Shown here: piece after piece, positions 17,151 through 41,469 of the stretch
How the letters are laid out: every line of letters starts with the position of its first letter
How positions within the stretch are numbered: position 1 is the stretch's first letter
Source of the DNA: Cloeon dipterum
Lineage: Eukaryota; Arthropoda; Insecta; Ephemeroptera; Baetidae
Reading direction: 5' to 3'
Length of the DNA: 64,000 nucleotides
Assembly (NCBI RefSeq): GCF_949628265.1
Contig: NC_088789.1
Span: 30,435,883 to 30,499,882 of the forward strand
The notes under the pieces: generated by a model
Told to the model about the DNA's origin: nothing
The model's database searches: none
The model's input: the letters and a program-made list of their open reading frames with translations, nothing else
Position numbers and translations under genes: made by a program

Positions 17151-17159
17151 CCATTCCGG

Positions 17160-17910
17160 GCCTGTTTTAATTTTTTGGTCCAGTCCGTGCCTGAGACGCT
17201 CGCATGCAAAAAGCAGCGGAGCCAATAGGGGAGAAAAAATGAACAAAATACACATGCCGCGAAGGAAGGAAGGACGAAAATACAAATGTGTTTAGAAATA
17301 ATTACAATTTCTAGAGCTGCCTTGAGATCTCACAATCAGAGAATAATTAAAATCCTTACCGCAATTAAAGTGTCAGGGGAGCAAAAAGGGTCTTCGTTTT
17401 ATAGAATAAATTCGGAATAATAAAACGAGGATTTAGAGGGACGAAAAGAGGGTTGGGATAAAGCTTCCTGGCTCATTAATTAGATTTCAGACCAATTATT
17501 GTCAAGATAAATGTTTAAAATGCGATTTAGTAAGAGACTTACGGAGAACTGAAGCTGCAACAGGCGAGAAAATGCGGTGAGAGTATGATTGAGGGCTGAC
17601 GCGTGCACTGCTCGACGCTCTGGCTGACAATGAGAAGGAGAAGAACTTTGCTGCAGCTGCAACAAGCGAACAGAGGACCACATACAGGTTGAAAAGGTGA
17701 ATGACCTGGCAGGTGCAAGCCCATGATAACAAAGAACATTCCAATAAAAGGCAAAGGTGTGGGAAAGAAGCTGGCTTAGAAAAGCAGAGAGAAAAATTAT
17801 TTTGCCGTCACAAAGGCTTCCGCAGAGCAACATTCTTATTTATTTACGAATTTTATTTGTACGTCGACCAGAAAAAACGCTTTTTCTCGCTCTTAATTTT
17901 TGTAATCCAG
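17160..17910 (-). repeat. About 1.1-kb dispersed promoter-like repeat, copy 1 (partial)
   Basis: Related copies lie at 19.0-20.09 (-), 21.16-21.54 (+) and 31.75-32.84 (+). Shared landmarks, read in the + copy orientation, are 'gttccgtggaagc', 'gacggcaaaatcattttt', 'cctgttgcagcttcagttct', 'ccgtaagtctctta' and 'tttttctccccc'. The 'cttcagttct|ccgtaagt' stretch looks like an initiator followed by a splice donor, so the unit may derive from a gene's promoter and first exon. Overlapping ORFs here are not convincing. Confidence 0.7.
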
Positions 17911-19020: not shown

Positions 19021-20090
19021 AAACCTGAGCGCCTGAGACGCTCGCATACCAAGCAGCGAAGCCAAAATAACGGGGGAGAAAAATGAACAAGGTACACATT
19101 CCGCGCATGGAAGGAAAGGTTAAAAATACAAATGTTTTTAGAAAAAATTACAATTTTCAATGCTACCTTCAGATCTCCCAATTAGAGAATAATTATTATA
19201 TTTTATGTGGCAGTGAAATTGTCGAGGTCATATAATAGGTCTGCTTTTTATAGATAAGCAATTCGGATACGAGGATTTTGTGGGACAGAAAGCGGATTGA
19301 GATAAAATTTACTGACTTATTGATTAGATTTCATAACAATTATAATCAATATAAATATTTAAATGCGATTTTGTAAGAGACTTACGGAGAACTGGAGCTG
19401 CAACAGGCGAGAAAATGTGGTGAGAATGAATAACAGAGAGGGATGACGCGCTTACTGCTCGACGCTCTGACTGACAATGAGAAGAACTTAGCTGTGCTGC
19501 TGACTCACAGGGCTGAAAAGGTGAATGACCTGGCAGCTGCAAACAAACAAGGTGTGAGTGGGAGTGGTTTGGGAAAGAAGCAGGCTTACAAAAGCGGGGA
19601 GAAAAATCGAGCAACTAATTTTGCCGTCACAAAGGCTTCCACGGAGCAAACATTCCTAATTATTTACGCATTTTATTTGCGTCGCAATTAAAATTCAATA
19701 ATTTATAATACGATTTTTTCGACGCGAATGTGCCTAAAAAAATTAGTTCAACCAACTGACGGAGGGAAATTATTTTCTGAAACTGCCAATTTATTAGTTC
19801 GCAATTTCAGGTACTCATAGGGTTGCAATTAAAATGTGTTTTGATAATTAAGTTGCGGATGACGACAGCAGCCTGAGGGAAGCAAGCAGCCTTTTTAAAA
19901 TGTATAAAACTCTACTTCGTTCTGCATGATAGTGCAACAAATATGTGGAAGATAAAAAGAAATACATGCGCGCTCTCTGCTCTCTTTTGCTATAATGACA
20001 AATAAGGAATTAAGCGGCCCTATATTTAAAAAATACTTGAAGACAGAAACTACTACTTATAGTGCGCCTACATGGTAATTTTAACTAAAA
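19020..20090 (-). repeat. About 1.1-kb dispersed promoter-like repeat, copy 2 (longest - strand copy)
   Basis: The reverse complement matches 31.75-32.84 along most of its length. This includes the outer part ('cttgaagacagaaact', 'ctgcatgatagtgcaacaaa', 'aaaactctacttcgttctgc'), which is missing from copy 1, and the inner part ('gagacgctcgcat', 'gggggagaaaaatgaacaag'). No ORF is conserved among all copies, which argues for a non-coding repeat or a transposon without coding capacity. Confidence 0.7.
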
Positions 20091-21545: not shown

Positions 21546-21850
21546 GTGGGTAATTGTTGCAATCCTGATGTTTGCAACCAAAAAAATAAGGAACCAAAAA
21601 AATTCGAAAAATTTCACAAAAACTAATATTAACACCACCTTGAATGAAATATACATTTCCAGCATTTTTTGCTTCGGCCCATGATTATTTATATTTCACG
21701 CTCACGACGAGTCAGTTCGTCAGTTGACATTCATTCGGCTTGCCGCTGGCTTTGTTAATTGCTGCACGCCGAAATTCAACTAAGGTTTTTCGAAGCTCCG
21801 TTTTTCACCGCAGCAGGTGGACGACACGTACGTAGAATCGTGTTGCGAGC

Positions 21851-24800
21851 ATGGCCTTCAACTACCTGTACCCGGTTGCCAGGAGAGACGAGAGTGTCGA
21901 GGACGATTACCACGGGACCAAGGTCACCGACCCCTACCGTTGGCTCGAGGATCCCGACTCGCCCGAGCGCAAGGAGTTCGTGGAGAAGCAGAACGCCATT
22001 ACCCAGCCGTACCTGGAAAATTTCAATGACAGGGAGGAAATCGAGAGCCGCCTCACGCAGCTCTGGAGCATTCCAAGATACATGTGTTCCTCGCGCCATG
22101 GCGACCGCTACTTCTTCCAAAACACCGGCTACCAGAGTCAGAGGTAATTTTGCTGGTGACCGATTAAGTAGCAGTAAGTATAGCTTTAACATCAATTTTT
22201 ATAATTCTGAATTTTTTCAGCGTGATGTACGTGCAGGATGATTTATACAGCGAGGCTGACGTGTTTTTTGACCCGAATGCTGAGCTGTTCGAGGATGGCA
22301 CAGTGGCACTGACTGGAACTAAGTTTTCCGAGGACGGCAAAACAATGTGCTACAGCATGAACAAAAGCGGCTCAGACTGGAAAAACATCCACTTTAGAGA
22401 CACTGAAACAGGCAACGAACAAAATGCTGAATGAGTACACAATTATGTTTTTTATTAATCTTTAAATTCAGGGCGTGATTATCCGGAGGTGCTCAAAAAG
22501 GTCAAGTTTTCTCTGATGGAGTGGTCGCAAGACAGTAAAGGAATTTTCTATGGCGTAATATATTTTATTTTTAAGAAAATCAGTCCTTCTCACGTTTATT
22601 TATTACATCAGATGTATCCGGAACAGCAGGGAAAAGCAGACGGCTCCGAGACGGAGGTGATCAAGAACCAAAAGCTGTACTACCATAGGCTGGACACCCC
22701 ACAGTCGGAGGACGTTTTGGTCGTCGAGTTCCCCGACGAGCCGCGTTTCATAATGTATGCATGATTAATCGTTTTATTGATGTTAGTTGTTTATTTTTTA
22801 AATTATTCTCAGAGGTGGCTTTGTGAGCCACTGCGGCAATTACCTGATCGTCTGTCCGACGAGGGATAGCAAGGATCATTTGGTGTTCTTTGCTGAGATC
22901 GGCTCTCTGCCTGATGGACCTCGAGGACTGCTGCCTCTCACCCAGATCGTGCACAAAATGGAGTCTCGCTATGAGGTTAGTCTTTATTAAAGGATAAAAA
23001 ATGGCCTACAAACGGGTGGTTCGCGCCAACCCTTTGGGCAACTGTCCGTTTGCCGTCGAGGACGAAAAATTGACTGAAAGAGTTAAAACCACCGTGTGGC
23101 CTGAGGATGGTCGATGACAGGCAAGGGTGAAAAATCGCCAAATGTGCTACAAGGAAGCATAAAATATCGGCCAAGGAGCCGTTCTCAGGTCACGGAACCC
23201 TGGAAAATTTCGGTCTTTATAGAGTCCTCCAAATTAAAGCCCATATTCAAATACTTATTGGGCCGGAGTTTTAATAATTTCTAACTCATTGCCAGACCTC
23301 GAAACCCTCTACCCTACAAAGGGTTTCTAATTAAATAAAGTTTTTAAGTGGGGTGGGTAATTTTCATTTTAATTTGATATAAATTAATTTTTCCAGTACG
23401 TGACAAACGTGGGTTCCAAGTGCATCTTCCGGACCAACAAGGACGCACCCAACTACCGTTTGGTCAGCATCGACCTGGAAAATCCGAGCGTGGACGAGTG
23501 GAAGACCCTGGTGGCTGAGCACCCAAAGGACGTGCTCGACTGGGCCGTCCTTTCAAACAAAGACAAACTCGTCGTTTGCTACATCCACGACGTCATGGTT
23601 CGTTTGACCTTAGTTTATTTTATTTTTAAAAGATATGTAAATTAATAACGTTTAATTCAGAGCGTTCTGCAAATCCGAGATTTAGCCACCGGGAATCTGA
23701 TCACGCAGCTGCCCCTGGAGCTCGGCACGGTGTCCGACGTGTCTGCGAATAGGAAGTACCCGGAATTATTTTTCGAGTTCTGTTCGTTCCTCACGCCGGA
23801 AGAGATTTACATGTGTGACCTGTCAAAGCCGATCATTAAGCCTGTGGTAAGGAGTTATTTTGTGATCAATAACTTTGAAAAAAAATTGTTGAATTTCAGC
23901 TGTACAAAAAAGTCGAGATGAAGGACTTCGACGCCTCGTTGTACATGATGGAGCAGGTGTTCTTCTCGAGCAAGGACGGCACCAAGGTGCCCATGTTCAT
24001 CGTGCGCAAAAAGGACTTCAAGAAGGACGGCAACAGTCCATGCTTGCTGTACGGATACGGTGGCTACGGCACCAGCGTGCAGCCCAATTTCCACGCCATA
24101 AGGCTGGTCTTCGTGCAGCATTTCAATGGAGTCTACGTCGTTGCCAACATCAGGGGCGGAGGGTGAGTACATTTCTTTTCAATTGACCAGTTGCATTGCA
24201 TAAACCCTTAGTTATTGAAGCCGCCAACAAATGGCGCAACCACAAACTTTCTTAAAAATTTTGTTTTAAGCGGTTTTAAGGCACTTCCGCTGCGATTTCA
24301 GATTCAATCTAGCTATTTTGCTTTTTTTAAATTAATTTGCTAATTTTTGAAGTGCTGAAAACCAAAATCGGTTCAGCCATTCGCCGTAGAAACGTTGGAA
24401 AAGATTTTTTATTTCAAAAAATTGTTTCTCATGATTCTACGGCGATTGGCTGAACCGATTTTGGTTTTCAGCACGTCAAAAATTAGGAAAATAATTGAAG
24501 AATGCACAGTAGCTAGATTGAGTCTGAAATCGCAGCGGAAGTGCCTTAAAATCGAAAGTCTACGGTGGCACCGCATCTGTTGGTGGCTTCGAACACTTAG
24601 GGTTTATGCAACTGGTGAATTTACAAGTAATCATTACGAAATTTACGGACAGACCATCAGTTGCGAGAAAGGAGAAATAAAAAGAATTTCAGAGATTTCC
24701 AAATACTATAAATAAGTTTTCTCTACGAAATCAAAGCAATGTCAAATTTCCTGTCACTCAAACACTCCAAGAATTGGTTTTCGATATAATCTTCTCGCCG

Positions 24801-26293
24801 CGGGCTCTCCTTTATGCAGGTAGCAGATTCCTTAAATGGTCCTACGAAGATGCAGCATCAAATATTTAAATAATCCTCTATTCACAAACGTCAGCTATAT
24901 CTCTTGGTCAAGAGTTTTTAGTTCTTGATCAGGAAAGACAAGAAGTGTCACCTAAAACTTTGGAGCTTACATGATGATTGCAATTAATCACGATTCCGAT
25001 TTATATTTTTGCCTAACTTTATTGGAAATAAAATTAAACCGATCTAGCGCAAGGGGATCCTAGATTTTTCCGCCAAAACAAATATGAACGTATAATGCGC
25101 ATGCGTCAGAGCTGGCTGGATTGGACATTCGTTCAGGCAGCCTCTCTGCAAATGAGTAATCTAAAATCAACAATTGTTTGTTTTCAGAGAGTACGGAAAG
25201 TCGTGGCACAACGCTGGCCGAGTGTTGAACAAGCAGAACGGTCTGGACGACTTCCAGGCCGCGGCCGAGTACCTGATCTCGGAGGGCTACACGAGCAGCG
25301 CCCGCCTGGCGATCCATGGCGGCTCGATCGGTGGCCTGCTGGTGGCGGCGTGCATCAACCAGCGGCCGGAGCTCTTCGGCGCCGCCATCGTACAGGGCGG
25401 CGTGCTCGACATGCTGCGCTTCCACAAGTTCACCATCGGCTACGCGTGGGTGTCCGAGTTCGGCAGCCCGGACGACCCTGATCACTTCCGCAACCTGCTG
25501 GACATCTCGCCGCTGCACAATATCAAGGTGCCGGACGAAGACGCTCCGAGGAATCCGCTCGAACGGCCCAGTCCCAGGCAGTATCCGGCCACGCTGCTGC
25601 TCACCGCTGACCACGACGACCGCGTCGTGCCCCTCCACTCTCTCAAGTTCATCGCCCAGCTGCAACACACCCTGCGCGACTACCCTGCCCAGGTGAGTGT
25701 CATTCGGGGCGGGAAATTTTCGGATCCTGAGCAGAAATATAAGCTCTGTTATATGAGAATCAGGTTTTTTTCGGGACAGGAATTAACCAGTTGTATAAAC
25801 CCTCCAACAGATGTCGCCACCTTATACTTTAAATTCAAGGCAATTCCGCTGCAATTTCAGACTCAATCCTGCCACTAAGCATTCTTTACTTCATATATTT
25901 TCTTTTGACAAGCTGAAAACCAAAATCTATATGTAAGCCGACAGCTTTTAATTCGGTTATTTTGTTTTTGCATCTATTCCAGACGAATCCGCTGCTCATC
26001 AAGGTAGAGACCAATGCTGGACATGGTCTCGGCAAACCCATTGCCAAAGAGGTGAGATTCAAATATTCTTTTTTGTTTGAGACTATAATTGTTAGCCGAT
26101 TCACCAATTGGAGAGGAGTGTATGCGAAGATGAAAACAGATTGCACCACGGTTCATACTATTTTAACTGCGATTTTAGATTAATTGCAGCTTCAAGGTTC
26201 TGAAATTCAAAAATTATCCTGTTTCAGATTAAAGTGGAAACGGACATTCTCTCGTTCATCGGGCATTCTCTGAAAATCCAGCGCGTCTTCTGA
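21851..26293 (+). CDS. PREP: Prolyl endopeptidase (prolyl oligopeptidase), 11 exons, 720 aa
   Basis: Cytosolic serine peptidase of family S9A that cuts short peptides after proline. Exons: 21851-22143, 22221-22411, 22472-22554, 22612-22754, 22813-22975, 23397-23597, 23661-23846, 23900-24162, 25188-25692, 25983-26051, 26228-26293; all join in frame. The N-terminus ([27 protein letters not shown]) and beta-propeller region match the family. The peptidase end shows YGYGGYG, ANIRGGGEYG, the nucleophile motif GGSIGG (Ser554), ADHDDRVVP with the Asp, and AGHGLGKP (His690). Vertebrate enzymes have about 710 residues; the extra length is mostly a 10-residue insert near 627-639. Two oddities: GGSIGG replaces the usual GGSNGG, and intron 2 appears to start with GC. 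TCAGT at 21712 is a candidate initiator; AATAAA is at 26344. Introns 8 and 9 hold MITEs. Confidence 0.95.
24187..24616. mobile_element. Fold-back MITE in PREP intron 8
   Basis: Arms of about 185 bases face each other around a loop near 24.38-24.43. The outer ends read 'ccagttgcattgcataaacc' and 'ggtttatgcaactgg', and the inner arms read 'gctgaaaaccaaaatcggtt' and its complement. Related copies lie at 25.79-25.92 (one arm), 41.227-41.450 (fold-back) and about 41.99-42.1 (one arm). There is no coding capacity. Confidence 0.8.
25065..25165. repeat. Fragment of the 39.4-kb fold-back element in PREP intron 8
   Basis: The stretch 'ccgccaaaacaaatatgaac' through 'gcgcatgcgtcagagctggc' and 'ctctctgcaaatgag' matches one half of the element at 39378-39783. 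The other arm is absent. Confidence 0.7.
25790..25925. repeat. Single-arm MITE copy in PREP intron 9
   Basis: Carries 'accagttgtataaaccctcc', 'aacagatgtcgccacc', 'ggcaattccgctgcaatttc' and 'gctgaaaaccaaaat', in the same order as one arm of the intron 8 fold-back. Confidence 0.7.
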
Positions 26294-26349
26294 GTTACAA
26301 AATGACCTTCTTTTGTTAATTATGTATGATAAAACATGTAGGAAATAAA

Positions 26350-28370
26350 AGGAATTGAGTTCAATTAATAAGACTGCTATGCTGATTTAGCGCACAATTC
26401 CCCTACCGAAAGCACAATAATAACGTTTATAAACATTTGGATGCGGTACACATTCATTTATTGCTAAGTTAGTCGGCTGCTTGGCGCCGCGGTTGCGCCG
26501 GCTGCCGCCCTCTGCTGCTCCAACGCAAGCAGCTTTTCTTAGCCCGGCTCTGCACACGTCCTGAAGAAATTTCCTGTCATAGAAAATATTATTAACTAAA
26601 CGAGATCTATTTTTGAGTCCTTGAAAAGGGCCGATTCTTGATTCCGCTGTAATGCATGATCATAAGTCTGCTTAGCATAACCGAAACCGAACCCATGCAG
26701 ACGAGAGGAAACACGAAACTGATGAATTTTTAGATGAACGGCGATTACAGGGGTAGCACGGCTGCAGGGAGCAGCAAACCGTCACCATCCAATAATAAGC
26801 GTCGTGAAAATTGCCAGCCCCAGCCGGTCCTGCACGCCGCCACTTTAAGTCTCGCGGCTGATTGTGCGAGACCTCTTTGAAATTTTGCCAATTTCTCTCC
26901 TTTCCGTCGCTTGAAAACTTTTCTTGGCAGATTTGGATTCCTCTTCTTGTCGAGATCTATCCAACAGTGAATGACGCTTTTAAGAAACTCTTTGCTGTGA
27001 AATAAAAAATAAGATTTTAAGTACAGGGTGACATTAAATTTGTAACCATTTGAAAAGCATTATCGCTTTGCACAGACTATAAAGTGGAATGATACTGGGC
27101 AACAATTGAAAATTATTTAAATTGTTGGACGCCTTAAACAATTGACCGATAAACAATTTGTTCAACAATTTACAATAATCAAAAGGACCTTCCTACAATA
27201 ACAATAACAATTCAAATTTTGCCAATTTTCTAAAAAATTTACAGTGCTTGAACATATTTTCTTGGCATATTCCGATTCCTCTCGTCGAGATCTGTTCAAC
27301 GGTGTATGCCACTTATTGGGCAAACTCTTGGTTTTGAAATTAAATGGGATTTCAAGTAAGGAGACAGCCATTGCCATTTGAAAAGCACGCTAACTTTCCA
27401 GCCAATTTTCTTAAAAAATTACAGCGTTCCTTAGGTCAATTTAGGCTTTAACTGAATCCTAAGGGATGAGTTTATGCATTGGCAACAAGCATTTTCCAGG
27501 CTTTTCCAGCATCATTTCCTCTTTAAAAAATACATTACCATAAAATAGATTAATTTGTGTGTGAATCCCCTTATGGTACGAACAATAGTAGAAATATGAA
27601 AAACACTTTATATTCAATAATATTGTTTGCTTAATAAAAAATGATTCCTAATGGTACCACAAGGGATTTCAATTAAATTGTTAAACACTCTAATTGCATT
27701 ATTCACGGTACAATGAAATTTCATTGAGGAACACAATATATTTACTCTCGAAAGTCCTCATTATCTTTCTTGAACCAATAATATTTTCAATAGAGGATAT
27801 TTTCTCCATTGTAAAGTGAAGTGAATCTATTATTGTTTCCTCCCAAACCCTCAGCCATGTTTTCCATTGGGCGAAACCCCCACTTTGCCACTTTATAATC
27901 GTGTACCATATATAACTCTTGGATTACTTGAGAGTTAATTTTCCACGCGTTAACAACCGTCAAGTGTGGGAGACGTCCGCAGACTTTTATTGCTCTCGAG
28001 TTTGGCAGAGTGAGTGGTGAGAAACTTATAGTTCACTGAGCTTATTATTTCCTCTTTTAAATTCAAGAGAAGAGATAAATCCTTGAAACGCTTGGTCAGT
28101 GCGTTCATTGCCTCACACCCCACGTACTCTTAAATTCTTCTTTACTTCTGCGAGACTCCAGCATATTTTTATATTCCAAAAATGCTTCTTTCCCTGACAG
28201 TGCGCAGACATAAGCTTTCTGCCAGCTGTCTCGCTCAGGTCTTCCCTTTGTTGTTCCTGTAATTTTATTATTAATTTATTTTCACCCAATTCCCTAATTT
28301 TTAACAATAAAATATTCTGTTATCTTTTGTCTCATTTTGCAGCATTTTATCAAGCAGTATTAGCCTTCCA
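26350..28370. other. Intergenic; two copies of a short dispersed repeat
   Basis: No gene seen. About 26880-27060 and 27220-27420 are diverged copies of one repeat ('ttttgccaatttct', 'attcctct..cgtcgagatct', 'aaactctt..tgaaat'), and a third copy lies reversed near 60480-60660. The rest is AT-rich. The last few hundred bases are probably promoter and 5' UTR of the KIX-like gene, with an acceptor-like 'ttttgcag' at 28335-28342. Confidence 0.55.
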
Positions 28371-28373
28371 ATA

Positions 28374-28838
28374 ATGGCGGAGGGACAACAGCAAGACCCA
28401 GTAAATGAACCTGATTCTCCTAACCAAGAAGTGAAGGATTGGCAAAAATTGGTTTCCTCAGAATTCCGAAATACCCAAGTTTTAAAGTTTCTGTAAGCAA
28501 AGTATAATACATTTGAGTAGATTTATCACTAATAAAACTATCTTCTGCGATTCGACAGAACTCAAGCTATGCGTTTCCTGATGATGAACTATATGTTGCA
28601 TATGGTTTATTCGGCAACTACATCAGAAATATTGAAAAGGGAATTTTTGAAACGGCGATTAGTGAGGTGAGTACTCTTTTCCTCAGAGACATTTTATGAA
28701 TAATAATACTATTTTTTCCAGACACATTATTACGATCTGATTGAAGATAAGATTCGCTTTTTCGGATCGAGAAGAAATGAAAGAAGGTCAAGACGAAAAA
28801 ATATAGGCTTTTCCAGATTTGAGAAAAGAAGGTGCTAA
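28374..28838 (+). CDS. Stand-alone KIX-like domain protein (3 exons, 111 aa)
   Basis: Exons 28374-28492, 28567-28666 and 28722-28838 join in frame. The acceptor at 28566 (CAAG) was preferred to the one at 28558 because only it keeps the frame. After a polar, acidic 20-residue start, nearly the whole protein resembles the KIX domain of CBP/p300: KDWQKLVSSEF (CBP has KGWHEHVTQDL), LKFLYAFPDDELY, GNYIRNIEKGIFETAIS (CBP: NLVAYAKKVEGDMYESANS), THYYDLIEDKI (CBP: DEYYHLLAEKI), then an Arg-rich tail. KIX binds short activator helices such as those of CREB and MYB. No acetyltransferase, bromodomain or TAZ finger is present, so the product could act as a free KIX decoy or adaptor. An AATAAA-like signal lies near 28909. 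Similarity is judged by eye; function is inferred. Confidence 0.75.
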
Positions 28839-28919
28839 ATTTATAGAGGAGTTAAATTGCCATTAATTTTTTTATAATTATTATTTCCTGTTGATGAGAG
28901 GAAATTTTAATAAAAATGG

Positions 28920-29486
28920 ATTGGTAAAGAAGGGTTGATTTTCCAAATTCATTGCTTATTTTTTATTTATCCATAACTAAGCGTTTGTTTGATAATTATT
29001 TTTATTTAGGCTTTAAAAATTTAATCTGAAAAGGAGAGAAACTTTTTTGTCTTGCTTGTCGTCAATTAATCAATAGCTCTAATTTTCTCTTCATAAAATA
29101 TTTTTACTGTTGCGACGACGATATTTACAGACTTCGTACTGTAAATAAATTCATTTATCTTCCAAGGGGGTTATGAAGATGAAGTAGCGCGCTCGCCCAA
29201 ATAAAGCATGCGACTGCATTTTCTTCAACTATCGGAACACAAATATGAAGCAATATAGTAACGACAAAATTCCATTATTTACTTCGATCTATTTTAACAA
29301 TGAAATTCAAGAAAGGCAAACACAAAATTCTGCTATTTTCTGGAATTTATGCCGCTTGTCGATATGTTATGCCTATTTTTCTTCTCCTGCAAGTGGCCAA
29401 GCGACAGTATATAGCCACCCAAGTCGGGTCAATCAACCCTTAAGCCACCAACGTTGCCAAAATTCTGGTTTTCTTCTGCATAGCTT
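28920..29486. other. Intergenic, no gene seen
   Basis: AT-rich spacer between the KIX-like gene and the left member of the large inverted pair. The 95-codon ORF at 29245-29532 runs into the transposon end and has no domain. Confidence 0.5.
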
Positions 29487-29488
29487 TA

Positions 29489-31665
29489 CCCGCATAAAAA
29501 AATATAACCCAGGAATATCCAGAATAATCTAAGATTAATCGAAATTTACCGGAAAAAATTAATCCAAAAAAATGATCCAGGATTAATCCTGTATTAATTG
29601 AGATTAATCTATGAATGTTTAAGATCAATCTAGAGATTAATCTAAAAAAATATCCTCAGATTATTCTTTAGATCATTCTGAGATTAATCTAAAAAATTAA
29701 TTTCTAGAATTTTCCTGGAATTAATTCAGATTAACCTTAAAATGTTCTAAAGTCAATCTAGAGATTAATCTACAAGAATATCCCTAGAATAATCCCAAAG
29801 GGGAAATTTGAATATAGTTAATAGAATATCCCCAGATTATTCTATGGATCATTCTGAGATTAATTCAAAATATTTTTTTAATGTTCCTAGAATATTCTTT
29901 AAAAAACTCTAAAAGAGAAGAACTTAGATATTTTTCTTACAATTAAAAACACAAAATTAAATATGAAACATAATTTAATCAAGAAAATTAACTGCCATAT
30001 TGTTAAATATTTTGAAATCGCGTTATCACAAAAAATATTTTTCTGAGAAATATTTTATAATCAAGTCGATGGATTAAATTTTAATATTAAAACCCAAACC
30101 TTTTTCATTATCTGATACAAAATTATGATGCCTTTATTTTTCAAAGAATCTGCCCGGATTAAAAAGGGTAAAAATCATAAATGCGATTGAATAAATTAAT
30201 TTCTTAACACAAAGAGTCTTATTTAATGCTACCGACAAACGGGCAAATATGAAAATAATGGTCAGAAGGACAAAAAAGGGTTAAAAGGGCGATTTTAGTT
30301 TGCGCGTGGTAGCGGCGGCTGCACATGCATGCACGCACTTGCATGGAATGCCTGCCGCCTGCCTCTGGAGCGGGGGGGGGGGGGGGGGGGGGCGACGGGC
30401 GGTGGCAGCAGGACTGGCGAGCAGCAGCAGCAAGAGACTTACAAAATCCTGCTTCGCTCTCTTTGTCTAACGCGTCAACGGTCAACCGCCGTTCAAAGTT
30501 AAAGTTAATAACGGACGCAGGACGCCGGACGCCGCCAGTAAGGGACAACACGGACGTCCCGCGGACTTGGACGGATGGCTTGGATCTGGCGGTTAACAGG
30601 GTAAGTCCCATTTTATAGATTAGCGTCCAAAGAAATTAGAAGAGATCGCGCAACTTTGAATCCAACGGTTTTATTGTAAAATTACACTTTTCGCCGCTAC
30701 TTGTACGGTTTTCGCCACCAATATTTTGATATGGGATCTTCTACAGTCCTTAATGTTCTTAATTAGAACCCTATAAATAAGTTTGGGTGGCGGAAACTGT
30801 AAATCGGTGATGAAAGATGTAATTTTTCCATGTAAATCGCAGTCGCATTTTTTGTTCGCTTACGAGAATTTTTATTACACATTCCGATTCAATTGGCTTC
30901 GCATGGAAAATGGAAAAATATTATGCATGAACTTGACATGCTTCTACCTTCCATTTTCCAAGCACAGCTAATTGAAAAAAGCTTTTATTTATTTATTTTC
31001 TACGAGTCGCTCCCTTTTTTTAGCTTCAAGCCGTCCGCAGCTGTTTTGCACGACGGGAAAAGATACAATCGTTTAAGTTCTGCAGTTTGGGCTTCAAGAT
31101 TGGCGGTGCTGGCATCGAATGAGAGAAAATTTTGTACCTGATATGATTAAAAACAAATAAATTTTAAAAATTTAACTGAATAAGTTTGTAATTATTTAAA
31201 TAATTCCCAATTATATCGCACTAATAGTGTAATAACAGATTTTTTAAATATTCTAGGAACAATCTGAGGGTAATTTTAAGAATAATTTATGGATAATTTT
31301 TGTCACACTTTATGTTAACCTTAAAATAATATTAGAATCACCTAAGAACATTCTTAGATTATCCTGAAAGAATAATCCAAAGTTAAGATTTGATACGCTA
31401 AATATTAATCCCAGATCAATCCAAAGATTAATCCATAAGTATATTCTGAGAATGTTCTAGGATCATTCTTTAGAGCTTTTTGAAACAAACCCCGGCAGAG
31501 TAATCCTGGAACATTCTAAGGATATTCTCTTAAATTAATCTACAGATTAATCCAGTATCATGAAAAACCGTATCATAAGTTCATATATAATTAAATTTTT
31601 AGATTAATCCTGGGCGAAGTCGGTATATTCTTAGAACATTCTCAGGTGATATTTTTTTATGCGGG
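29489..31665. mobile_element. 2.2-kb terminal-inverted-repeat element, left member of inverted pair
   Basis: The ends read 'cccgcataaaaaaatat' and its complement, with TA on both sides (29487-29488 and 31666-31667). Both subterminal regions are packed with 'agattaatct'-type palindromes. The GC-rich centre has a 20-plus G run near 30372 and a 'gttaacagg|gtaagt' donor-like site near 30601. No transposase is present. A near-copy lies in the opposite orientation at 32839-34974. Together they form arms of about 2.1 kb around a 1.17-kb spacer and could produce a long hairpin RNA. Confidence 0.85.
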
Positions 31666-31749
31666 TAGATCATCCCGCGCGAAAAAGTTGAATTCCTGGG
31701 AATTTCTTATCAATTTTGATTCCAAATCGCTTGAAACATTTAATTGATT

Positions 31750-32838
31750 ACTAAAGGCGCACTACAAGTATATAGGAGTTTCTGTCTTCAAGTAAATGTA
31801 ATTTTAAAATATAGGGCCTTTTAATTCCTTATTTGATATAAACAAAAGAGAGCAGAGTATTCTTTTTGATCTTCCGCATTTTTGTTGCACTATCATGCAG
31901 AACTTTAAGTAGAGTTTTATACATTTTAAATAGGCTCGTAGCTTCTCTAAGGGTGTTGTCGTCATCCGCACCTTATAATTATCAAATCACATTTTAATTG
32001 CGACCCTGGGTGCCTGGGTACCTGAAATTGTGAATTAATAAGTTTTCAGTACCAGAAATTATAATTTCTCTTCGTCAAGTTGGTTGAATTATAATTATTT
32101 TAGGCACGATCGCGTCAAAAAAAACGTGTAACCAAATTTCGGTGAATTTTTATTGCAATCCAGATAAAATTCGTAAATAAATAAGAATGTTGTTCCGTGG
32201 AAGCTTTAGTGACGGCAAAATCATTTTTCTCTCTACATTAGTAAGCCGGCTTCATTCCCAAACCACCCCCACACACCCGCGGTTTGGAATGTTCTTTGCA
32301 GCTGCCAGGTCCCTCACCTTTTCAACCCTGTGAGCCAGCAGCACAGCCAAGTTCTTCTCATTATCAATCAGAGCGCCGAGCAGTAAGCGCGTCAGCCTTC
32401 TATAACAGACCACATTTTCTCGTCTGTTGCAGCTTCAGTTCTCCGTAAGTCTCTTATACTAAATCGCTTTTTAAATATCTATATTGAGAATAACTGTTAT
32501 GAAATCTAATCAATCAGTCAGTAAGTTTTATCTCAACCCGCTTTCCGTCCTACTAAATCCTTTGTGCTATGAATTCGATTTTTTTTCTATAAAGAGTAGA
32601 CCTTTACCTTGACACTTTAATTGAGTCAAAAATAACATTTATTCTCTGACAGTGAGATCTCAATGCAGCACTAAAAATTGTAATTCTTTCTAAAAACATT
32701 TGTCTTTTTAATCTTTCCTTGCATGCGCGCCATGTGTACCTTGTTCATTTTTTCTCCCCCATTATTGGCTCTGCTGCTTGGTATGCGTGCGTCGCAAGCA
32801 CGGACTGGACCAAAAAATTCAAACAGGCACGGAGTGGC
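31750..32838 (+). repeat. About 1.1-kb dispersed promoter-like repeat, copy 4 (in the hairpin spacer)
   Basis: Fullest + strand copy: the 'gtttctgtcttcaagt' outer part, 'gttgcactatcatgcagaac', 'gttccgtggaagctttagtg', the 'ttgcagcttcagttct' and 'ccgtaagtctctta' site, and a 'cggactggaccaaaaaattc' right end. It abuts the right-hand 2.1-kb element directly. Beyond that element, from 34975, the sequence continues with the next part of the same duplicated segment. Confidence 0.7.
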
Positions 32839-34974
32839 CCCCGCATAAAAAAATATCACCTGAGAATGTTCTAAGAATATACCGACTTCGCCCAGGATTA
32901 ATCTAAAAAATTAATTATATATGAACTTATGATACGGTTTTTCGTGATACTGGATTAATCTGTAGATTAATTTATGAGAATATTCTAAGAATGTTCCAGG
33001 ATTATTCTGCCGGGCTTTGTTTCAAAAAGCTCTAAAGAATGATCTTAGAACATTCTCAGAATATACTTATGGATTAATCTTTGGATTGATCTAGGATTCA
33101 TATTTAGCGTATCAAATCTTAACTTTGTATTATTCTTTGAGGACAATCTTAGAATGTTCTTAGGTGATTCTAATATCATTTTAAGGTTAACATAGATTGT
33201 GACAAAAATTATCCCTAAATTATTCTTAAAATTACCCTCAGATTGTTCCTAGAATATTTCAAAATCTGTCATTACTATTACTGCGATATAATTGGGAATT
33301 ATTTAAATAATTACAAACTTATTCAGTTGAATTTTTAAAATTTATTTGTTTTTAATCATATCAGGTACACAATTTTCTCTCATTCGATGCCAGCACCGCC
33401 AATCTTGAAGCCCAAACTGCAGAACTTAAACGATTGTATCTTTTCCCGTCGTGCAAAACAGCTGCGGACGGCTTGAAGCTAAAAAAAGGGAGCGACTCGT
33501 AGAAAAAAATAAATAAAAGCTTTTTTCAATTAGCTGTGCTTGGAAAATGGAAGGTAGAAGTATGTCAAGTTCATGCATAATATTTTTCCATTTTCCATGC
33601 GAAGCCAATTGAATCAGAATGTGTAATAAAAATTCTCGTAAGCGTACAAAAAAGGCACCGCGATTTACATGGAAAAATTACATTTTTCCTCACCGATTTA
33701 CAGTTTCCGCCACCCAAACTTATTTATGGGGTTCTAATTAAGAACATTAAGGACTGGAGAGGATCCCATATCAAAATATTGGTGGCAAAAACCGTACAAG
33801 TAGCGGCGAAAAGTGTAATTTTACAATAAAACCGTTGGATTTCAAAGTTGCGCGATCTGTTCTAATTTCTTAGGACGCTAATCTATAAAATGGGACTTAC
33901 CCTGTTGACCGCAAGATCCAGGCCATCCGTCCGAGTCCGCGGGACGTCCGTGTTGTCCCTTACTGGCGGCGTCCGGCGTCCTGCGTCCGTTAATAACTTT
34001 AACTTTGAACGGCGGTTGACCGTTGACGCGTTAGACAAAGAGAGCGAGGCAGGATTTTGTAAGTCTCTTGCTGCTGCCACCGCCCGTCGCCGCTCCCCCG
34101 CTCCACAACAGAGGCAGCAGCAGCAGGCATTCCATGCAAGTGCGTGCATGCATGTGCAGCCGCCGCTACCACGCGCACACTAAAATCGCCCTTTTAACCC
34201 TTTTTTGTACTTCTGACCTTTTATTCAAATTTGCACGTTTGTCGGTAGCATTAATTAAGACTCCTTGTGTTAAGAAATTATATTATTCAATCGAATTTAT
34301 GATTTTTTACCTTTTTTAATCTGGGCAGCTTCTTTGAAAAAAGGCATCATAATTTTGTATTAGATAATGCGAAAAAGGTTTAGGTTTTATTATTAAAATT
34401 TAATTATCGACTTAATTAAAAAATATTTCCCAGAAAAATATTTTTGTGATATTATTTAACAAGATGGCAGTTAATTTTCTTGATTAAATTATGTTTCATA
34501 TTTAATTTTGTGTTTTTAATTGTAAGAAAAATATCTAAGTTCTTCTCTTTTCGGGTTTTTAAAGAATATTCTAGGAAAATTAAAAAAATATTTTGAATTA
34601 ATCTCAGAATGATCCATAGAATAATCTGGGGATAATCTATTAACTTATATTCAAATTTCCCCTTTGGGATTATTCCAGGGATATTCTTGTAAATTAATCT
34701 CTAGATTGACTTTAAAACATTTTAAGGTTAATCTGGATTCATTCTTAGAAAATTCCAAAAATTATTTTTTTGGATTAATCTCAGAATGATCTAAAGAATA
34801 ATCTGAGAATATTTTTTTAGATTAATCTCTAGATTGATCTTAAACATTCATAGATTAATCTCAATTAATACAGGATTAATCCTGGATCATTTTTTTGGAT
34901 TAATTTTTTCGGGTAAATTTTGATTAATCTAAGATTATTCCGGATATTCCTGGGTTATATTTTTTTATGCGGGG
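32839..34974. mobile_element. 2.1-kb terminal-inverted-repeat element, right member of inverted pair
   Basis: The ends read 'ccccgcataaaaaaatat' and its complement. The element is an inverted near-copy of 29489-31665, but its G run is interrupted and its centre differs by small gaps. The homologous sequence in the other duplication arm lacks the element: 'ggaatggc|cagttt' there (read in reverse at 17149/17150) against 'ggagtggc' and 'cagttt' here. That marks the exact insertion point and shows no obvious target duplication. Confidence 0.85.
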
Positions 34975-36000
34975 CAGTTTATATTGTAAAGTCAGTAAAT
35001 ATTTTAATATAATCTCATCCAATTCAAGGGGTATCCCAACTAAAAATACTGATTTAATTACAATATAATAGAGAAAATTGTTTTTTTATTCTTATGGATC
35101 AGAGGCTGTCAAGCGAGTAAAAGTAATATGTTTCTCCATTATATGTTGGCATTTATTTTTCTAATACGTTGAAAGATTGATTTGAGGATCCAAATTTTGC
35201 ACACTCGGCTTTTAACTCACCCGGGTTTTTTCTCAGGCTAAAAAACCAATAAGACCCACTCTGTTTTACTCAAGGCTTCAATATTTAAAGTATATTATCC
35301 TTTATTGCTTAACTGAGCTAATATCTAAGCATATAGGGATCAGTCATAAGGAAAAAGAATAAAAATTGACTTCGTCGTGAGATTAAGGTCGTGACCGAAA
35401 TGCTTCATTGAAAGATTGAGCGCTTAGTATGCAACTTCATTATGATGAATTTTTCAATATTTATATTACTTTTTGAAACTCAAATTTCGTTATGTTTTTG
35501 CTCGGACTATCTGTAACTTTCAGAATTCTAAAAACTAACCAGCGTAAGCAGTCATAGACTACTATGCGGCCTGAATTAATGCCAGGATACGTGAAGGTTT
35601 TGCGACGTTAATCTAGATAAATGGCAAATTCCTGAATAATTATCAAGCTAGATAAGTCCTGACCAAGTTGCATTTGACAAAATCTAATCTGAAACTCCCC
35701 ATAAAAAATTAAAGATACCGAAATTGTCCCCAATAAAACCCAGGAGGGTGTTGTAAAAGGTTAAATAGCCCGGGTGTTTCCTAACCCTGATATATTAGTG
35801 GGATCTTTTGGATATCGTAATGATCGTACTTTGAGAACTCTATTAAAGTGTCTTTATTTTGTAGCTCTTAACACTTTAAGATTCCCTTAATTGGCAAGAT
35901 CATTAGAATATTGTTTCTGAACAAAATGAGACGTGATAAATATCGTTTGAAATCTTAAAATTGTTTATTAATTCGATTCTTTTTGTTTCCAGTTGAGGAA
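34975..36000 (+). repeat. Upstream arm of the AnkA/AnkB inverted duplication, AnkB side
   Basis: Matches the reverse complement of 16.33-17.15 kb in blocks: 'cagtttatat', 'gcggcctgaatt', 'tctagataaatgg', 'ctgaataattat', 'gataagtcctgaccaagttg', and 'cgattctttttgtttccagt' just before exon 1. No gene seen. Confidence 0.7.
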
Positions 36001-36008
36001 AACTCAAA

Positions 36009-37942
36009 ATGAACAACGTGAAAGTGAAAGAGTATATTCCCGATTCTTCCAGCATAAGGAGTGAGTATAGATTTTTATAGCCGATATACACGGAAGTCTC
36101 GAAGCCAGCAAACTTTTGTTTACGTGGTCAGCCATCAGCTATTTAACTGTTGAAAAACGGATGTCGCAGGGAAGAAATATATTTTCATCCTTCTGGGACG
36201 TTTGGCAGAGTATATAATAGCTTGAAAAGATAAAAGAACAAATTTGATTTATTAATTTTTTCAAATTTCTCAGCCGGAACAGTAGGAATAAAATTTGACA
36301 ATGGCTGGGCATTCAAATTAACGCGGCTGAGACACCAATGCAAAAGATAAATAGTTTAAATTGGTCAAATATTTCAGGAAAACGACAACTAGAGAGAGAG
36401 CAAAAAATTAAGCAGGAGAAGAAAATGAAATTGGATGAGCAGAACGAAAAAATGATAAAGAAAAAGCTGAGATTAGTTGAAGAGAACAAAGGTGAGATAC
36501 CCGCTCTCCATTTCGCGGCAAGGGTGTCCGATGTTGATGTTTGTCGGCGCCTCGTGGATCAGGGCGCCGACGTCAACGAAAAATTCAGCGATTTTGGCGC
36601 TACACCCCTGCACTACGCCGCCATGAACGCAGCCCACGGAGAAAGTATAATAGACTACCTCGTGGAAAAAGGGTTAGCCATTGATGAAGAAGATGCTCAT
36701 CGTGAGAAAGCAATCGATTATGCCGTCCAAGCTGGAAATTACAGGCCTGCACTGAAACTACATAATCACTCTCAGAGACAGAATGGTGGAAAAGCAAAAA
36801 TCAATAAATGGCTACATTTTTGCATCGTGCAAAATCTGTTGATGTTCGCGAAAATAGTTTATAACAATTACAAGGGTCAAGAGAGATTGTGGGAACACCC
36901 ATATGATCGTTTTGCCATCCTTGAAACAGCGTGCCAGTTTGGAAATCTGGAGATGTGCAAGTGGTTGCTGGAAGAAGTCAAAATCGACGTCAACCGCTTT
37001 GAAGAGACTGATTGGAAAGAACATATTCTTATTGACGCTGCCGTCAACCGTAAAAATGAAGCGAGTAAGATTCTTCATTACTTGTTCTCAAGGTTCGAAT
37101 TCACCGTTGCTCAGCAAAGAAATGCCTATAGATCGGCTTTCCTTCATCAATTAGGACACTACTCATTCTGTGCAAAAGAAATTGAAGAGTTGTTCCAGAG
37201 AGTTGCGGACACAAAAATGAAAATAGAAGACAAAAATTTGTTGCAGTATTGTGTGTCGCGCAACAATTTAAACGCTGCGAAATTCGTGCATGCAAAAGAT
37301 GGCCACCTCATAAATGAGATCTGTGAAGATGGAGGGACCATTCTCCACCTCGCAGCGCAGTTTGGAAGCGTCGAAATGTGTTGGTGGCTGATTAATCAGG
37401 GTCAAGACATCAACATCTTAAGCAACAAAACTTTTGACAGCTTCCTCCATTACGCTGCGCTAAACTTCATCAATGGAGAAGACATCATCAAGGAATTCGG
37501 AAAGAACGTTCTAGGCGGATACGTGAACCAAATCAACACAAACTTCTTCACTCCCCTTCATTTTGCCATGTTCAACAGAAGACAACACGTTGAGGTTGCA
37601 GAGGCTTTGCTTGAACTCGGTGCCGATTTGAACGTGAAATGGAAAGGGAACAACCTTCTTCACTTCTGCATCGTTGCTGGCAAGTTGGAATGTGCCAAAT
37701 TCGTGGACGCGAAAGACAAAAATCTGATCAAGAAAAGGGGAGAGGGAGGAAAAACCACTCTGCACATTGCTGTTGACTACTTTAACGAAGAAATCTGCGA
37801 ATGGCTTGTGGTGATAAAGGGGGCCAATCCCAGAGAATTGTCTGTTGGACAAAAATCAGTGCTGGAATTGACATCCCGTGAGGAGGTCAAGAAGTGTCTT
37901 CAATCGTTGATTAACAGGCAGGGAAGTGAAATTGTTTCATGA
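36009..37942 (+). CDS. AnkB: ankyrin-repeat protein (2 exons, 538 aa)
   Basis: Inverted twin of AnkA. Exon 1 is 36009-36060 (MNNVKVKEYIPDSSSIR) and exon 2 is 36378-37942, joined in phase 1 as in AnkA. An in-frame ATG at 36338 could also start a shorter protein. The order is basic N-terminus, repeats (PALHFAARVSDVDVCRRLV, GATPLHYAAMNAAHG), diverged middle, then C-terminal repeats (TILHLAAQFGSVEMC, SFLHYAALNFING, TPLHFAMF, GADLNVKWKGNNLLHFC, GKTTLHIAVDYFNEEIC). The coding similarity to AnkA is high throughout, while the tail differs: AnkB ends shortly after the last repeat and AnkA has a further basic tail. AATAAA lies at 38001. No catalytic domain is seen; it is probably a protein-binding scaffold. 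Confidence 0.9.
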
Positions 37943-38009
37943 ATAAATTCTTGGAATGAATAAGGTCCGCAATTTTCAATATACAAAATAACTTTATCGG
38001 AATAAAAAG

Positions 38010-38755
38010 ATGACAGCATAAATTAAACTTTTTCTTAAATCAACACCAGTATAATTGTTGAGTTTGCTTTTCTACTGAGCGCGCAGAATCAAAGATTGGA
38101 TGGATGCGTATGGCCCTTATTTCCTACTGTTTTTCCTGTTATGAAGTTCATTCATTGATTGTTCTAAAAGAATAACTTTAACATGCGGGCGTCCTGCTTT
38201 TTTAAAAAAAAAGAGCAAGCAGATCAGCAAATGGCAGTATAATAATTTTTCAACCGTACCTGCACCATTTAGGCAGTAAGAATTTCTGTTTTGACTGCTG
38301 ATCTCCAAGCTGGTTACGCCCACTTAATGCTTCTTGATTGTGAGAAATCATATGATCATTGCTTACGTCACTCGCTTTAAGTGAGCGTCACGCGATGTGG
38401 TCACGTGGTTCTTGCAGGCATGTCAAGTGGGCGTAACTCCTTAAGATCAGAAATATCAGAATTATCAATAACAAAATCTGATGTTTACTAATAACTTTTT
38501 ACTGCTGACCGTGTTCCTCACTTTGCAGTCGGAATTTGTTTATATTTTTGGCCATCAGTGAAGGTAAGCTATGATGATGTTTGTTTTTTACTATTCAATG
38601 ATGATTTCATCGTAATTTAATCCTTATTCTCCGCTGCTGAGTAATAAGCATCGACTTTCATAAATAAAATAATATTTCGATATGAGTCTTAAGTTTATTT
38701 CTAGATATACAAGTAGTGAATATGAATTACTATAGTTTACAATTTAAAAAGGTTG
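38010..38755. other. Intergenic with a weak inverted repeat
   Basis: Between two convergent ankyrin genes. About 38296-38455 holds an imperfect fold-back ('gctgatctccaagctggtta' and 'cgcccactta' against 'caagtgggcgtaactcctta' and 'agatcag'), perhaps an old MITE. No gene seen. Confidence 0.5.
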
Positions 38756-38820: not shown

Positions 38821-40828
38821 CTATACGTTGAGCAACCACTCTAACATGTGATAGTTTTGATACTCTTCAGCGATATGCAGACCCGTTTCCTTGTTCTTGC
38901 CCAGTCCTTCAATCTGTTTAGCGTCCTTAGCGTAAATAAACTTTGCACTAGAGAGCACATTGTTGCCCAAACAGTAGAGCAGCAGGTTGCACATCTTTAA
39001 TTTCACGTCCAGGTCGGCGCCCATCTCGATTAGCGCCTCTGCCGCTTTCAGGTTTCTCGATTTCAGGGCCTTATGCAGTGGCGTTTCTTCCAATTTGTCT
39101 CGCCTGTTCAGGTCTTCACGCAGTCGTTGGCCGAAATGCCGAATGATTTTCCCTCCTTGGTCGTGGTTGTAAGCGGCGCAGTGCAAAAAGGTGGACTCCA
39201 TCTTCGGGTTGATGGCGCTGAGGTCTTGGCCCTCCTTGATCAGCCACTCGCACATCCTGACGCTGGAAAACTCGGCAGCCAAGTGCAGCGTCGTTTCTCC
39301 GTCCTCTGTCATCAAATCCATCTGCGTTCTGTCCTTCTCATGCACGAACCTGAGGGTTTTTTATAAGGTTAAGGGTCATTTAAAGACTTCTTTGACGAAG
39401 TTTCTGAGCACACCAATCGATTCCTGAAGGTCGTATTTAGTTAAATGGATATTTTTCCGACCAAAACGTGCAGCGCGACGTGCGAACTTTTTTCCCGCCA
39501 AAACAATATGAACGAATATGCGATAAGTGCGCATGCGTCAGAGCTGGCTGGATCTGACAAAGAATTCATTTGTACAGGTGGTCTCTCTGCAAGTGCTCAC
39601 TGCTCAAACCAGCGCTCACGCATGCGCAGTTCTCGCGTTTACGTTCATATTGTTTTGGCGGGAAAAATAGTTCGCACGGCGCGCTGCACTTTTTGGCCGC
39701 GAAAAATATCTACTCTATTTAATTCGACCCTCAGGAATCGATTGGTGAGCTCAGAACCTTCGTAAAAGACAGTCTTTAAGGTTTCTTACTGAAATATCGG
39801 AAAAATCAAATTTATGGTGCAGAAAATCATTGTTTCATGCACGTCATACATTCAATTTCACCTATCATAAAAAATCACCAACCTGGCGCCCGCTAAGGAA
39901 TTTTCCACGACGCAAAAATGCAGAGGAGCTTGTTCATCAGCCACAAGTTTGATGTCGGCACCGTGGTCCAACAGGGTTGTCGCCATCTTGATGTTTCCCT
40001 GTATCAGGGATTCGCCCAGTAATAGTGCCAGGTTTTCAGTTGTCAGGGTAAATCTGAAGGATTTGAGAAGGTAGCGGGTGATTCTTCTGCCGTGTCTCTT
40101 ATTCCGCGTGGCTTTGAGGACGGCATCTAACTTCCAGCCGTCGTCCTTGGCCAGTTCTTCGCCGCAGATGCTGAGGAACCACTGCAAGGTTGGCAGGTCC
40201 GTGTACATGGCTGCCTCGATTAGCAGTTTCTCGTCGAATCGATCACTTCCTTTCTTTTTCACCACTGAATTGTCTTTTTCAAAAGCGAATTTCAATAATT
40301 CCAGGCCTTCGCAAATGCAGTGAAGCAGGAGGCTGCCCGGGTATTCGTAAAATTTGAATAGTTTCATCGCAAAATAGATGTTTTTGTTCCTAAAAGCGTG
40401 TGTGACTGCGTCAGTTTCTTCGTAATTCTTCTTTTGGGCATCGGCTCCGTGGCTTACTAAAAATATTTCGATCAATTGCAGTCCGTGGACAGCGTTCTCA
40501 GCAGCAAAATGAAAGACATTGGCACCGCTTTTAGCTTCGGTTACGCCGCCGTAATGGCCTGCCTGCACAAGATATTCGCAAACTTCTTCATCGCCAACTT
40601 TTGCCGCGAAAAGAAGAATTGGAATATCGCCTGCTCTATTCTTTTCTAAAAATTTTATTTTTTCTTCAAGCGTTTCCCTTGGGTTGCATTCCATCCTTGG
40701 AATTTTCTCTGACATATCTATACAAAAGGAACACTTCGATTTTGGGAATTTCTTCTATTTAAATTGTACTTACGGTGGTTGATTTTTTCAATCTTTCTTT
40801 TCAGAGGCTCCCTTTTGTAATAATTCAT
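38821..40828 (-). CDS. AnkC: ankyrin-repeat protein (3 exons, 472 aa)
   Basis: Exons 40774-40828 (MNYYKREPLKRKIEKINH), 39883-40717 and 38821-39349 join in frame. The start was extended upstream from the internal MSEK because the short first exon has a clean GTAAGT donor and correct phase, as in the sister genes. The joined A-R-F-V-H-E-K-D across intron 2 matches the AKFVH motif of AnkA and AnkB. Repeats include IPILLFAAKVGDEEVCEYL, NVFHFAAENAVHG, TTLHLAAEFSSVRMCEWL, TFLHCAAYNHDQG, TPLHKALKSRNLKAAEALI and TGLHIAEEY. It is shorter than AnkA because part of the middle region is absent. Intron 2 (533 bp) carries a fold-back MITE. A reverse AATAAA lies at 38759. It is probably a scaffold; no enzyme domain is visible. 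Confidence 0.88.
39378..39783. mobile_element. Fold-back MITE in AnkC intron 2
   Basis: Arms of about 125 bases: 'gagcacaccaatcgattcct' and 'cccgccaaaacaatatgaac' on the left, with complements 'gttcatattgttttggcggg' and 'aggaatcgattggtgagctc' on the right. The centre carries 'gcgcatgcgtcagagctggc'. A one-arm relative is in PREP intron 8. It fills most of the intron. Confidence 0.8.
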
Positions 40829-41226
40829 TCTATAGGGGATTCAGGTTCTGGCTCTGCAGGAAACATAAAATGTGAATTTTCTTAAATCAATCGACCAAAC
40901 AGTTACAATTAAAAAATATACAAACCTTGAAAATTGAGGAAAAGCCTCGAACCACTTAAAACTTTAATGTGAAAGAGCCGTTTCAACAGCAACCCCTTGT
41001 CTAAAAATTGTGACGAATCTGTACGCGTCTCTGCTTCCTCCAGGCACTCATGTAAACCGCTGTCACCTTTGCCTTCTCAAAAAGGAAACGTCTTGAATTT
41101 TTAGTTGGCGGTGAATTGTTGGAATTGCTTAGCCTGTTGTGGAGCTAAATTCCTAAAATCGCTGTCATATATCGAAAGCAAAGATTTATTTGATGGAAAT
41201 AAGGACATATTTACATAAATAATACG

Positions 41227-41450
41227 CACCAGTTGTGTTCGAAGCCGACAACAGATGGCGCCACCGTATACTCAAATAATAATTTTAATCTTCTATGGAA
41301 TTGTTTCTTTATAAGTTCTGAAAACCATAATATCAGTCCTACCATTCGCCGTAGAAACGTTAGACAATTAAAATTAAATTTATTACTATAGTATACGGTG
41401 GCGCCATCTGTTGGCGGTTTCAAACACTTAAAGGGCTTGTACAACTGATG
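41227..41450. mobile_element. Fold-back MITE, 'atggcgcca' family
   Basis: Ends 'caccagttgtgttcgaagcc' and complement-like 'ggtttcaaacact..gtacaactgatg'. Inner arms carry 'caacagatggcgccaccgta' and 'tacggtggcgccatctgttg'. Related to the fold-back in PREP intron 8. A one-arm relative lies near 41990-42110 ('gttcgaagctgcgaattgat', 'ggcgccactgtt'). Confidence 0.8.
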
Positions 41451-41469
41451 AATTGCCTTTACTTGCAAA

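What the first reader, a model, noticed from the sequence alone, without database searches (positions are those of the whole stretch)
28374..28838. A free-standing KIX-domain microprotein
A 111-residue, three-exon gene encodes little more than a KIX-like fold with the CBP hallmarks (Trp near the start, FP, YI..IEK.IFETA, YY.LIEDKI, basic tail). KIX is normally embedded in large coactivators (CBP/p300, Mediator MED15). A KIX-only protein could compete for activation domains as a natural dominant-negative regulator. I know of no described insect gene of this kind.
Basis: partly seen in the sequence, partly recalled or inferred. Interest (0 to 1): 0.75.

Follow-up and report, generated by a model that had tools for sequence, protein, structure and literature searches.

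The report
Stand-alone KIX-like mini-gene, possibly relic
A short split gene in a eukaryotic genome spells a diverged copy of the KIX docking domain of the gene activators CBP/p300, with no other part of those proteins detected nearby, but an awkward splice site leaves open whether it is a working decoy protein or a decaying fragment.

Summary
The observation largely holds. Exons 28374-28492, 28567-28666 and 28722-28838 (+) join to a 111-residue ORF. Pfam names it KIX (E=0.0013) and KIX_2 (E=0.012), both below curated cut-offs. Of 6 PDB sequences at E<=10, 5 are CBP/p300 KIX (best E=0.03). Among 127 blindly spliced ORF pairs from the window, only its exon 2-3 join hits CBP KIX, weakly; a reversed control gave 0 of 60.

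The exon 1-2 join needs a weak AAG acceptor 8 nt past a better CAG that reads out of frame. Codon usage is ambiguous. A strong acceptor 31 nt before the ATG suggests another 5' exon. No TAZ, bromodomain or HAT was detected nearby, by a scan that also missed these KIX exons. The fold core is kept; the CREB phosphoserine contacts are not. C. elegans has HAT-less CBP paralogues. Best reading: a CBP-derived KIX-only gene, either a phosphorylation-independent activation-domain binder or a pseudogene. Fold, expression, species and orthologues could not be tested.

The parts
28343..28492 (+). exon 1 as the splice signals suggest it: strong acceptor TTTTGTCTCATTTTGCAG ending at 28342, no in-frame stop before the ATG at 28374; codes residues 1-39 and two bases of codon 40, with the KIX helix 1 match (W23, V27, F31-R32, V36, K38)
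28493..28566 (+). intron 1 in the KIX-restoring reading: donor TCT|GTAAGC, acceptor AACTCAAG|C; a better CAG acceptor (exon start 28559) lies 8 nt upstream and goes out of frame
28567..28666 (+). exon 2: FP, linker and KIX helix 2 match (YI..IEK.IFETA)
   Evidence: single-sequence AlphaFold of the unspliced ORF piece 28517-28696 gives a long helix over the helix 2 match, mean pLDDT 72.6
28667..28721 (+). intron 2, 55 nt, GAG|GTGAGT to TTTTTTCCAG|A; its removal joins the KIX match without a gap
28722..28838 (+). exon 3: KIX helix 3 match (YYDLIEDKI) and basic tail (net charge +11 over residues 83-111), stop TAA at 28836-28838
   Evidence: unspliced ORF piece 28707-28835 predicted helical, mean pLDDT 74.3
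28909..28914 (+). AATAAA, a possible polyadenylation signal, about 70 nt after the stop
28182..28258 (+). possible further 5' exon (UTR, or coding from an ATG at 28182; donor CCT|GTAATT, 84-nt intron); speculative

Best explanation
A partial duplicate of a CBP/p300-type gene of which only the KIX domain is visible. If the 28567 acceptor is used, it makes a protein of roughly 13 kDa (estimate): a polar, acidic N-tail, a three-helix KIX domain and a basic tail. Shown: sequence homology to CBP KIX and conserved core residues; no other CBP domain detected nearby. Inferred: that it folds, enters the nucleus through its basic tail, and binds amphipathic activation domains without phosphorylation (the pSer133 contacts Tyr658 and Lys662 are replaced by Arg and Ser). 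Lacking a HAT, it would then compete with CBP for activators such as Myb- or MLL/trithorax-type proteins.
For: Pfam KIX and KIX_2 hits. PDB hits mostly CBP/p300 KIX. Shuffle and blind-splice controls. Kept relative to CBP: W591, V595, R600, V604, K606, Y631, E636, E641, A643, Y649, Y650, L652, K656, I657, and F for Y640, so the R600-aromatic core pair is possible; changed: Y658->R, K662->S (roles of R600, Y640, Y658 and K662 read in PMC3936767 section 5). Near-consensus donor and acceptor at intron 2 and AATAAA after the stop. HAT-less CBP paralogues affect promoters in C. elegans (passages of PMC10320766, and PMC10743222).
Against: The acceptor needed is poorer than the CAG 8 nt upstream (8 pyrimidines in the 17 nt before AAG, 11 before CAG). 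Codon usage is equalled or bettered by 46 of 424 intergenic windows, and the +1 offset frame scores slightly higher. Scores lie under Pfam's curated cut-offs. Helix 1 to FP is one residue short and FP to Tyr631 four residues short of CBP. L603->Q, A654->E and L664->R put polar or charged residues where CBP has hydrophobic ones; that these line the binding grooves is recalled, and it would speak against normal binding. No relative confirmed in viral contigs or genome contigs, collections that hold viruses and prokaryotes and so say little.
Confidence: 0.45

Rival explanations
1. A pseudogene: a partial CBP duplicate that has taken a frame-breaking indel at the start of exon 2. The canonical CAG acceptor continues the helix-1 motif (KFLTQAM, by eye like CBP KLVQAI) for a few residues, after which KIX similarity goes on in another frame. 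The in-frame AAG route is then a coincidence of reading.
For: Frame switch just after LTQAM in the CAG reading; CAG is the stronger acceptor; ambiguous codon usage; the CAG-spliced protein has no KIX hit in Pfam at E<=10; C. elegans cbp-2/cbp-3 had been classed as pseudogenes.
Against: Apart from that site the ORF is open through three exons and core residues are kept. Against CBP KIX the AAG reading of the N-terminal part aligns slightly better than the CAG reading (score 34 against 31; 20 against 43 of 1000 shuffles as good), a weak difference. Spacing W to FP is 19 against 20 in CBP.
Confidence: 0.35
2. A fragment of a larger gene: the strong acceptor ending at 28342 joins these exons to upstream coding exons, so the protein is not KIX-only.
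For: Acceptor with 14 of 17 pyrimidines just 5' of the ATG and no in-frame stop between them; a candidate short exon with an 84-nt intron. The six-frame Pfam scan missed the KIX exons too, so small exons of other domains could hide.
Against: No TAZ, bromodomain, HAT or other match above cut-off in six frames of 25900-30902 or in three + frames of 30900-36302; the upstream neighbour is a prolyl oligopeptidase. The 10 codons between acceptor and ATG score poorly as coding, so a 5'UTR exon fits better.
Confidence: 0.15
3. Chance resemblance of an intergenic reading to KIX.
For: Scores are below curated thresholds; other sequences gave presumably chance Pfam hits of similar size, such as NagA_C at E=0.028, Vfa1 at 0.024 and PRIMA1 at 0.0064; exon 1 alone is weak.
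Against: Two KIX models agree, 5 of 6 PDB hits are KIX, and the exon 2-3 join is the only hit among 127 blind splice models; 0 of 2000 shuffles reach the score.
Confidence: 0.05

Closest known systems
KIX domain of CBP/p300 (Pfam PF02172)
   Same: Trp591, Arg600, Val604, Lys606, Tyr631, Tyr649-Tyr650, Ile657 kept; phmmer alignment over residues 21-97, 19 of 62 gap-free columns identical; basic tail after helix 3 as in CBP
   Different: No TAZ, bromodomain or HAT detected around it (limited by unspliced reading); Tyr658 and Lys662, the CREB phosphoserine contacts, replaced; linker between helices 1 and 2 shorter
C. elegans CBP-2 and CBP-3 (passages of PMC10320766; of PMC10743222)
   Same: Truncated CBP paralogues without HAT; CBP-2 keeps KIX; pseudogene status disputed; RNAi of each affects promoters
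   Different: CBP-2 keeps the first zinc finger too. The two papers disagree on CBP-3 (zinc finger only, or KIX only). The three worm genes lie within 160 kb and align closely; this one is far diverged, and whether its genome has a full CBP could not be asked
MED15 KIX (Pfam PF16987 KIX_2; link to MED15 recalled)
   Same: Second Pfam match, over nearly the whole profile (3-80 of 83)
   Different: Weaker than PF02172; no MED15 chain among PDB hits at E<=10
Arabidopsis KIX8/KIX9 (listing; passages of PMC7160150)
   Same: KIX-named proteins that work in a repressor complex (with PPD and TOPLESS)
   Different: Plant proteins; said from recall to be corepressor adaptors with further regions, not read here

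Membership tests
KIX domain (CBP type, PF02172) | profile match above Pfam's curated cut-off | tested here: not met
   19.4 bits against 27; E=0.0013
KIX domain (CBP type, PF02172) | core residues: Trp591, Arg600 with aromatic 640, Tyr649/650 | tested here: met
   W, R, F, Y, Y at the aligned positions
KIX domain (CBP type, PF02172) | three-helix bundle | tested here: inconclusive
   only unspliced exon-2 and exon-3 ORF pieces were folded; both helical.
KIX domain (CBP type, PF02172) | pKID phosphoserine contacts Tyr658 and Lys662 | tested here: not met
   Arg85 and Ser89
CBP/p300 coactivator | TAZ, bromodomain and HAT with KIX in one gene | tested here: not met
   none found, an unspliced scan that also missed the KIX exons, so sensitivity is limited
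microprotein (single-domain competitor of a larger protein) | expressed small protein that binds the partners of the larger relative and inhibits it | not testable with these tools
   needs RNA-seq and binding assays

The most novel reading that the evidence does not exclude
A working animal KIX-only decoy that has lost the phosphoserine contacts and therefore binds activation domains without phosphorylation. Its production would be switched by an 8-nt tandem acceptor: the CAG route gives a KIX-less peptide, the AAG route the KIX protein.
Probability: 0.15. Interest if true: 0.7.

Novelty: new variant of a known kind. Interest (0 to 1): 0.42.

Why it matters
If expressed and under selection, it would be a natural inhibitor or adaptor made from the docking domain of CBP alone, and a small handle on which activators depend on KIX. 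If a pseudogene, it is a record of partial CBP duplication of the kind described in C. elegans.

Tried and rejected
Whole-genome search of the window's assembly: not held. Relatives in viral contigs (5 pattern matches) and genome contigs (116 pattern matches): none confirmed by tblastn. No PHROGs or NCBIfam family at E<=1, so no sign of a phage or prokaryotic origin. Other copies in the window: the next protein match after the locus itself is E=0.093, and DNA matches elsewhere are 14-24 nt. The KIX exons lie outside the 93% inverted repeat that starts at 29489. The alternative donor at 28479 with the CAG acceptor keeps the frame but drops part of helix 1 and scores worse (Pfam KIX E=0.0047; 171 of 1000 shuffles as good for its N-terminal part). 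Codon-usage test: ambiguous. I tried to confirm an arthropod origin through a zinc-finger-associated (ZAD) domain in the ORF at 11882-12058, and Pfam gave none, so the taxon stays open. The sigma-70/terminator scan is irrelevant to a eukaryote. Fold search was not used: isolated helices would match anything. Passages of PMC12897451 on crustacean CBP added nothing on KIX-only genes.

Full report
What was checked. The three exons at 28374-28492, 28567-28666 and 28722-28838 give a 111-residue ORF ending in TAA. Pfam returns two families at E<=10: KIX (E=0.0013, 19.4 bits, cut-off 27; best stretch profile 44-72 of 81) and KIX_2 (E=0.012, 15.9 bits, cut-off 25.6; profile 3-80 of 83). The alternative-donor reading and the exon 2-3 piece give the same two families, KIX at 0.0047 and 0.0024. 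For scale, presumably chance hits to other sequences reached E=0.0064 (PRIMA1) and 0.024 (Vfa1) and 0.028 (NagA_C). phmmer against the PDB returns 6 sequences at E<=10, 5 of them CBP or p300 KIX, best E=0.03, aligned over query residues 21-97; exons 2-3 alone give 5, of which 4 are CBP/p300, best E=0.3. The local alignment score to CBP KIX was reached by 0 of 2000 shuffles; for exons 2+3 by 1 of 2000, for exon 1 alone by 28 of 1000.

Blind control. I enumerated GTRAG...YAG introns joining two open stretches of at least 25 codons on both strands: 127 models. One, the exon 2-exon 3 join of this gene, hit CBP KIX, at E=2.5 for a database size of 177635 (below phmmer's inclusion threshold; about 0.002 by my scaling to 127). 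The reversed sequence gave 60 models and no hit. In an unspliced tblastn with CBP KIX the locus does not stand out (exon 3 at E=9, best elsewhere E=0.12 in a zinc-finger ORF). Taken together, homology to KIX is well supported but far diverged, and rests mainly on exons 2 and 3.

Surroundings. The upstream neighbour on the same strand is a prolyl oligopeptidase (pieces at 21836-22147, 23649-23918 and 25165-25875). Downstream are a 93% inverted repeat (29489-31665 against 32840-34973) and ankyrin-repeat ORFs (36299-37939, 42416-43840 and others). No TAZ, bromodomain or HAT profile appears in six frames of 25900-30902 nor in three + frames of 30900-36302; the only listed matches at E<=1 were SelK_SelG (0.33) and PRIMA1 (0.061), both below cut-off. 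That scan read the DNA unspliced and missed the KIX exons too, so small exons of other domains could have escaped.

Weak points. The exon 1-2 junction is the crux. The first acceptor after the pyrimidine stretch is ...ATTCGACAG (exon start 28559); it leads into LTQAMRFLMMNY..., out of the KIX frame, with a stop in exon 3. The KIX frame needs the AAG at 28564-28566, 8 nt further on and poorer in pyrimidines (8 against 11 of 17). The CAG continuation KFLTQAM resembles CBP KLVQAI by eye, which hints that the ancestral gene used CAG and later suffered an indel: the pseudogene reading, or a case where the acceptor has shifted. By alignment score against CBP the AAG reading is slightly better (34 against 31), so the matter is open. 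The CAG-spliced protein has no KIX hit. Codon usage, trained on 4319 codons of window ORFs, gives the CDS 0.016 bits per codon against an intergenic mean of -0.19 (sd 0.15), but 46 of 424 intergenic windows do as well and the +1 offset frame scores 0.043. A strong acceptor ends at 28342, with 31 nt between it and the ATG and no in-frame stop; a 5' UTR exon is the simple reading, a short coding exon from 28182 is possible. AATAAA lies about 70 nt after the stop.

Function. On the gap-free blocks of the phmmer alignment, 19 of 62 columns are identical to CBP KIX. Trp591, Val595, Arg600, Val604, Lys606, Tyr631, Glu636, Glu641, Ala643, Tyr649, Tyr650, Leu652, Lys656 and Ile657 are kept, Tyr640 is Phe, Leu653 is Ile; Leu603 is Gln, Ala654 is Glu, Tyr658 is Arg, Lys662 is Ser, Leu664 is Arg. 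According to the review PMC3936767 (outline, passages, and sections 5 and 8 read), Arg600-Tyr640 holds the fold, Tyr658 and Lys662 bind the CREB phosphoserine, and c-Myb binds without them. So, if made, the protein could fold and prefer phosphorylation-independent partners; this is inference, and the polar changes at 603, 654 and 664 speak against unaltered binding (their groove position is recalled). The unspliced exon-2 and exon-3 ORF pieces are predicted helical (mean pLDDT 72.6 and 74.3, single sequence), which is weak evidence only.

Comparison. HAT-less CBP paralogues exist in C. elegans: per passages of PMC10320766, CBP-2 has the first zinc finger and KIX, CBP-3 the zinc finger only; both had been called pseudogenes, yet RNAi of each changed promoter activity. 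PMC10743222 (passages) describes CBP-3 instead as KIX-only and probably a pseudogene. Arabidopsis KIX8/9 form a repressor complex with PPD and TOPLESS (passages of PMC7160150). Searches for KIX with microprotein, insect+duplication, stand-alone, arthropod paralogue, nejire+dominant negative, 'KIX domain-containing protein' and gene family expansion and for animal microproteins listed no insect KIX-only gene by title or abstract start. These are listings of open-access text only and no proof of absence.

Verdict. KIX-derived sequence: about 0.95. Working KIX-only protein: about 0.45. Pseudogene: about 0.35. Part of a somewhat larger gene: about 0.15. Chance: about 0.05.

Noticed in passing
29489-31665 and 32840-34973: Two arms of about 2.2 kb of an inverted repeat at 93% identity with about 1.2 kb between them, just downstream of the KIX exons; the spacer also matches 19031-20069 and 17149-17859.
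   Followed up: partly
14320-16126 (-) and 36304-38110 (+): Inverted duplicate of an ankyrin-repeat gene, about 80% identical in DNA, each copy with an ORF of about 550 codons; more ankyrin ORFs at 39861-48038.
   Followed up: partly
4350-5969, 8133-9730, 11719-13303: Three neighbouring C2H2 zinc-finger genes on the + strand, 70-78% identical in DNA over the aligned parts.
   Followed up: partly
54699-56770 (-): Transposase pieces in separate ORFs: TNP-like RNase H N-terminal part and GTP-binding insertion domain above Pfam cut-off, RNase H C-terminal part below it; P-element type by recall.
   Followed up: partly
61472-62168, 62213-62811, 39380-39779, 24171-24631: Several stretches of 0.4-0.7 kb that match their own reverse complement at 72-80%, perhaps fold-back elements; further, shorter ones at 51012, 56252, 59441, 59833 and 63074.
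   Followed up: no
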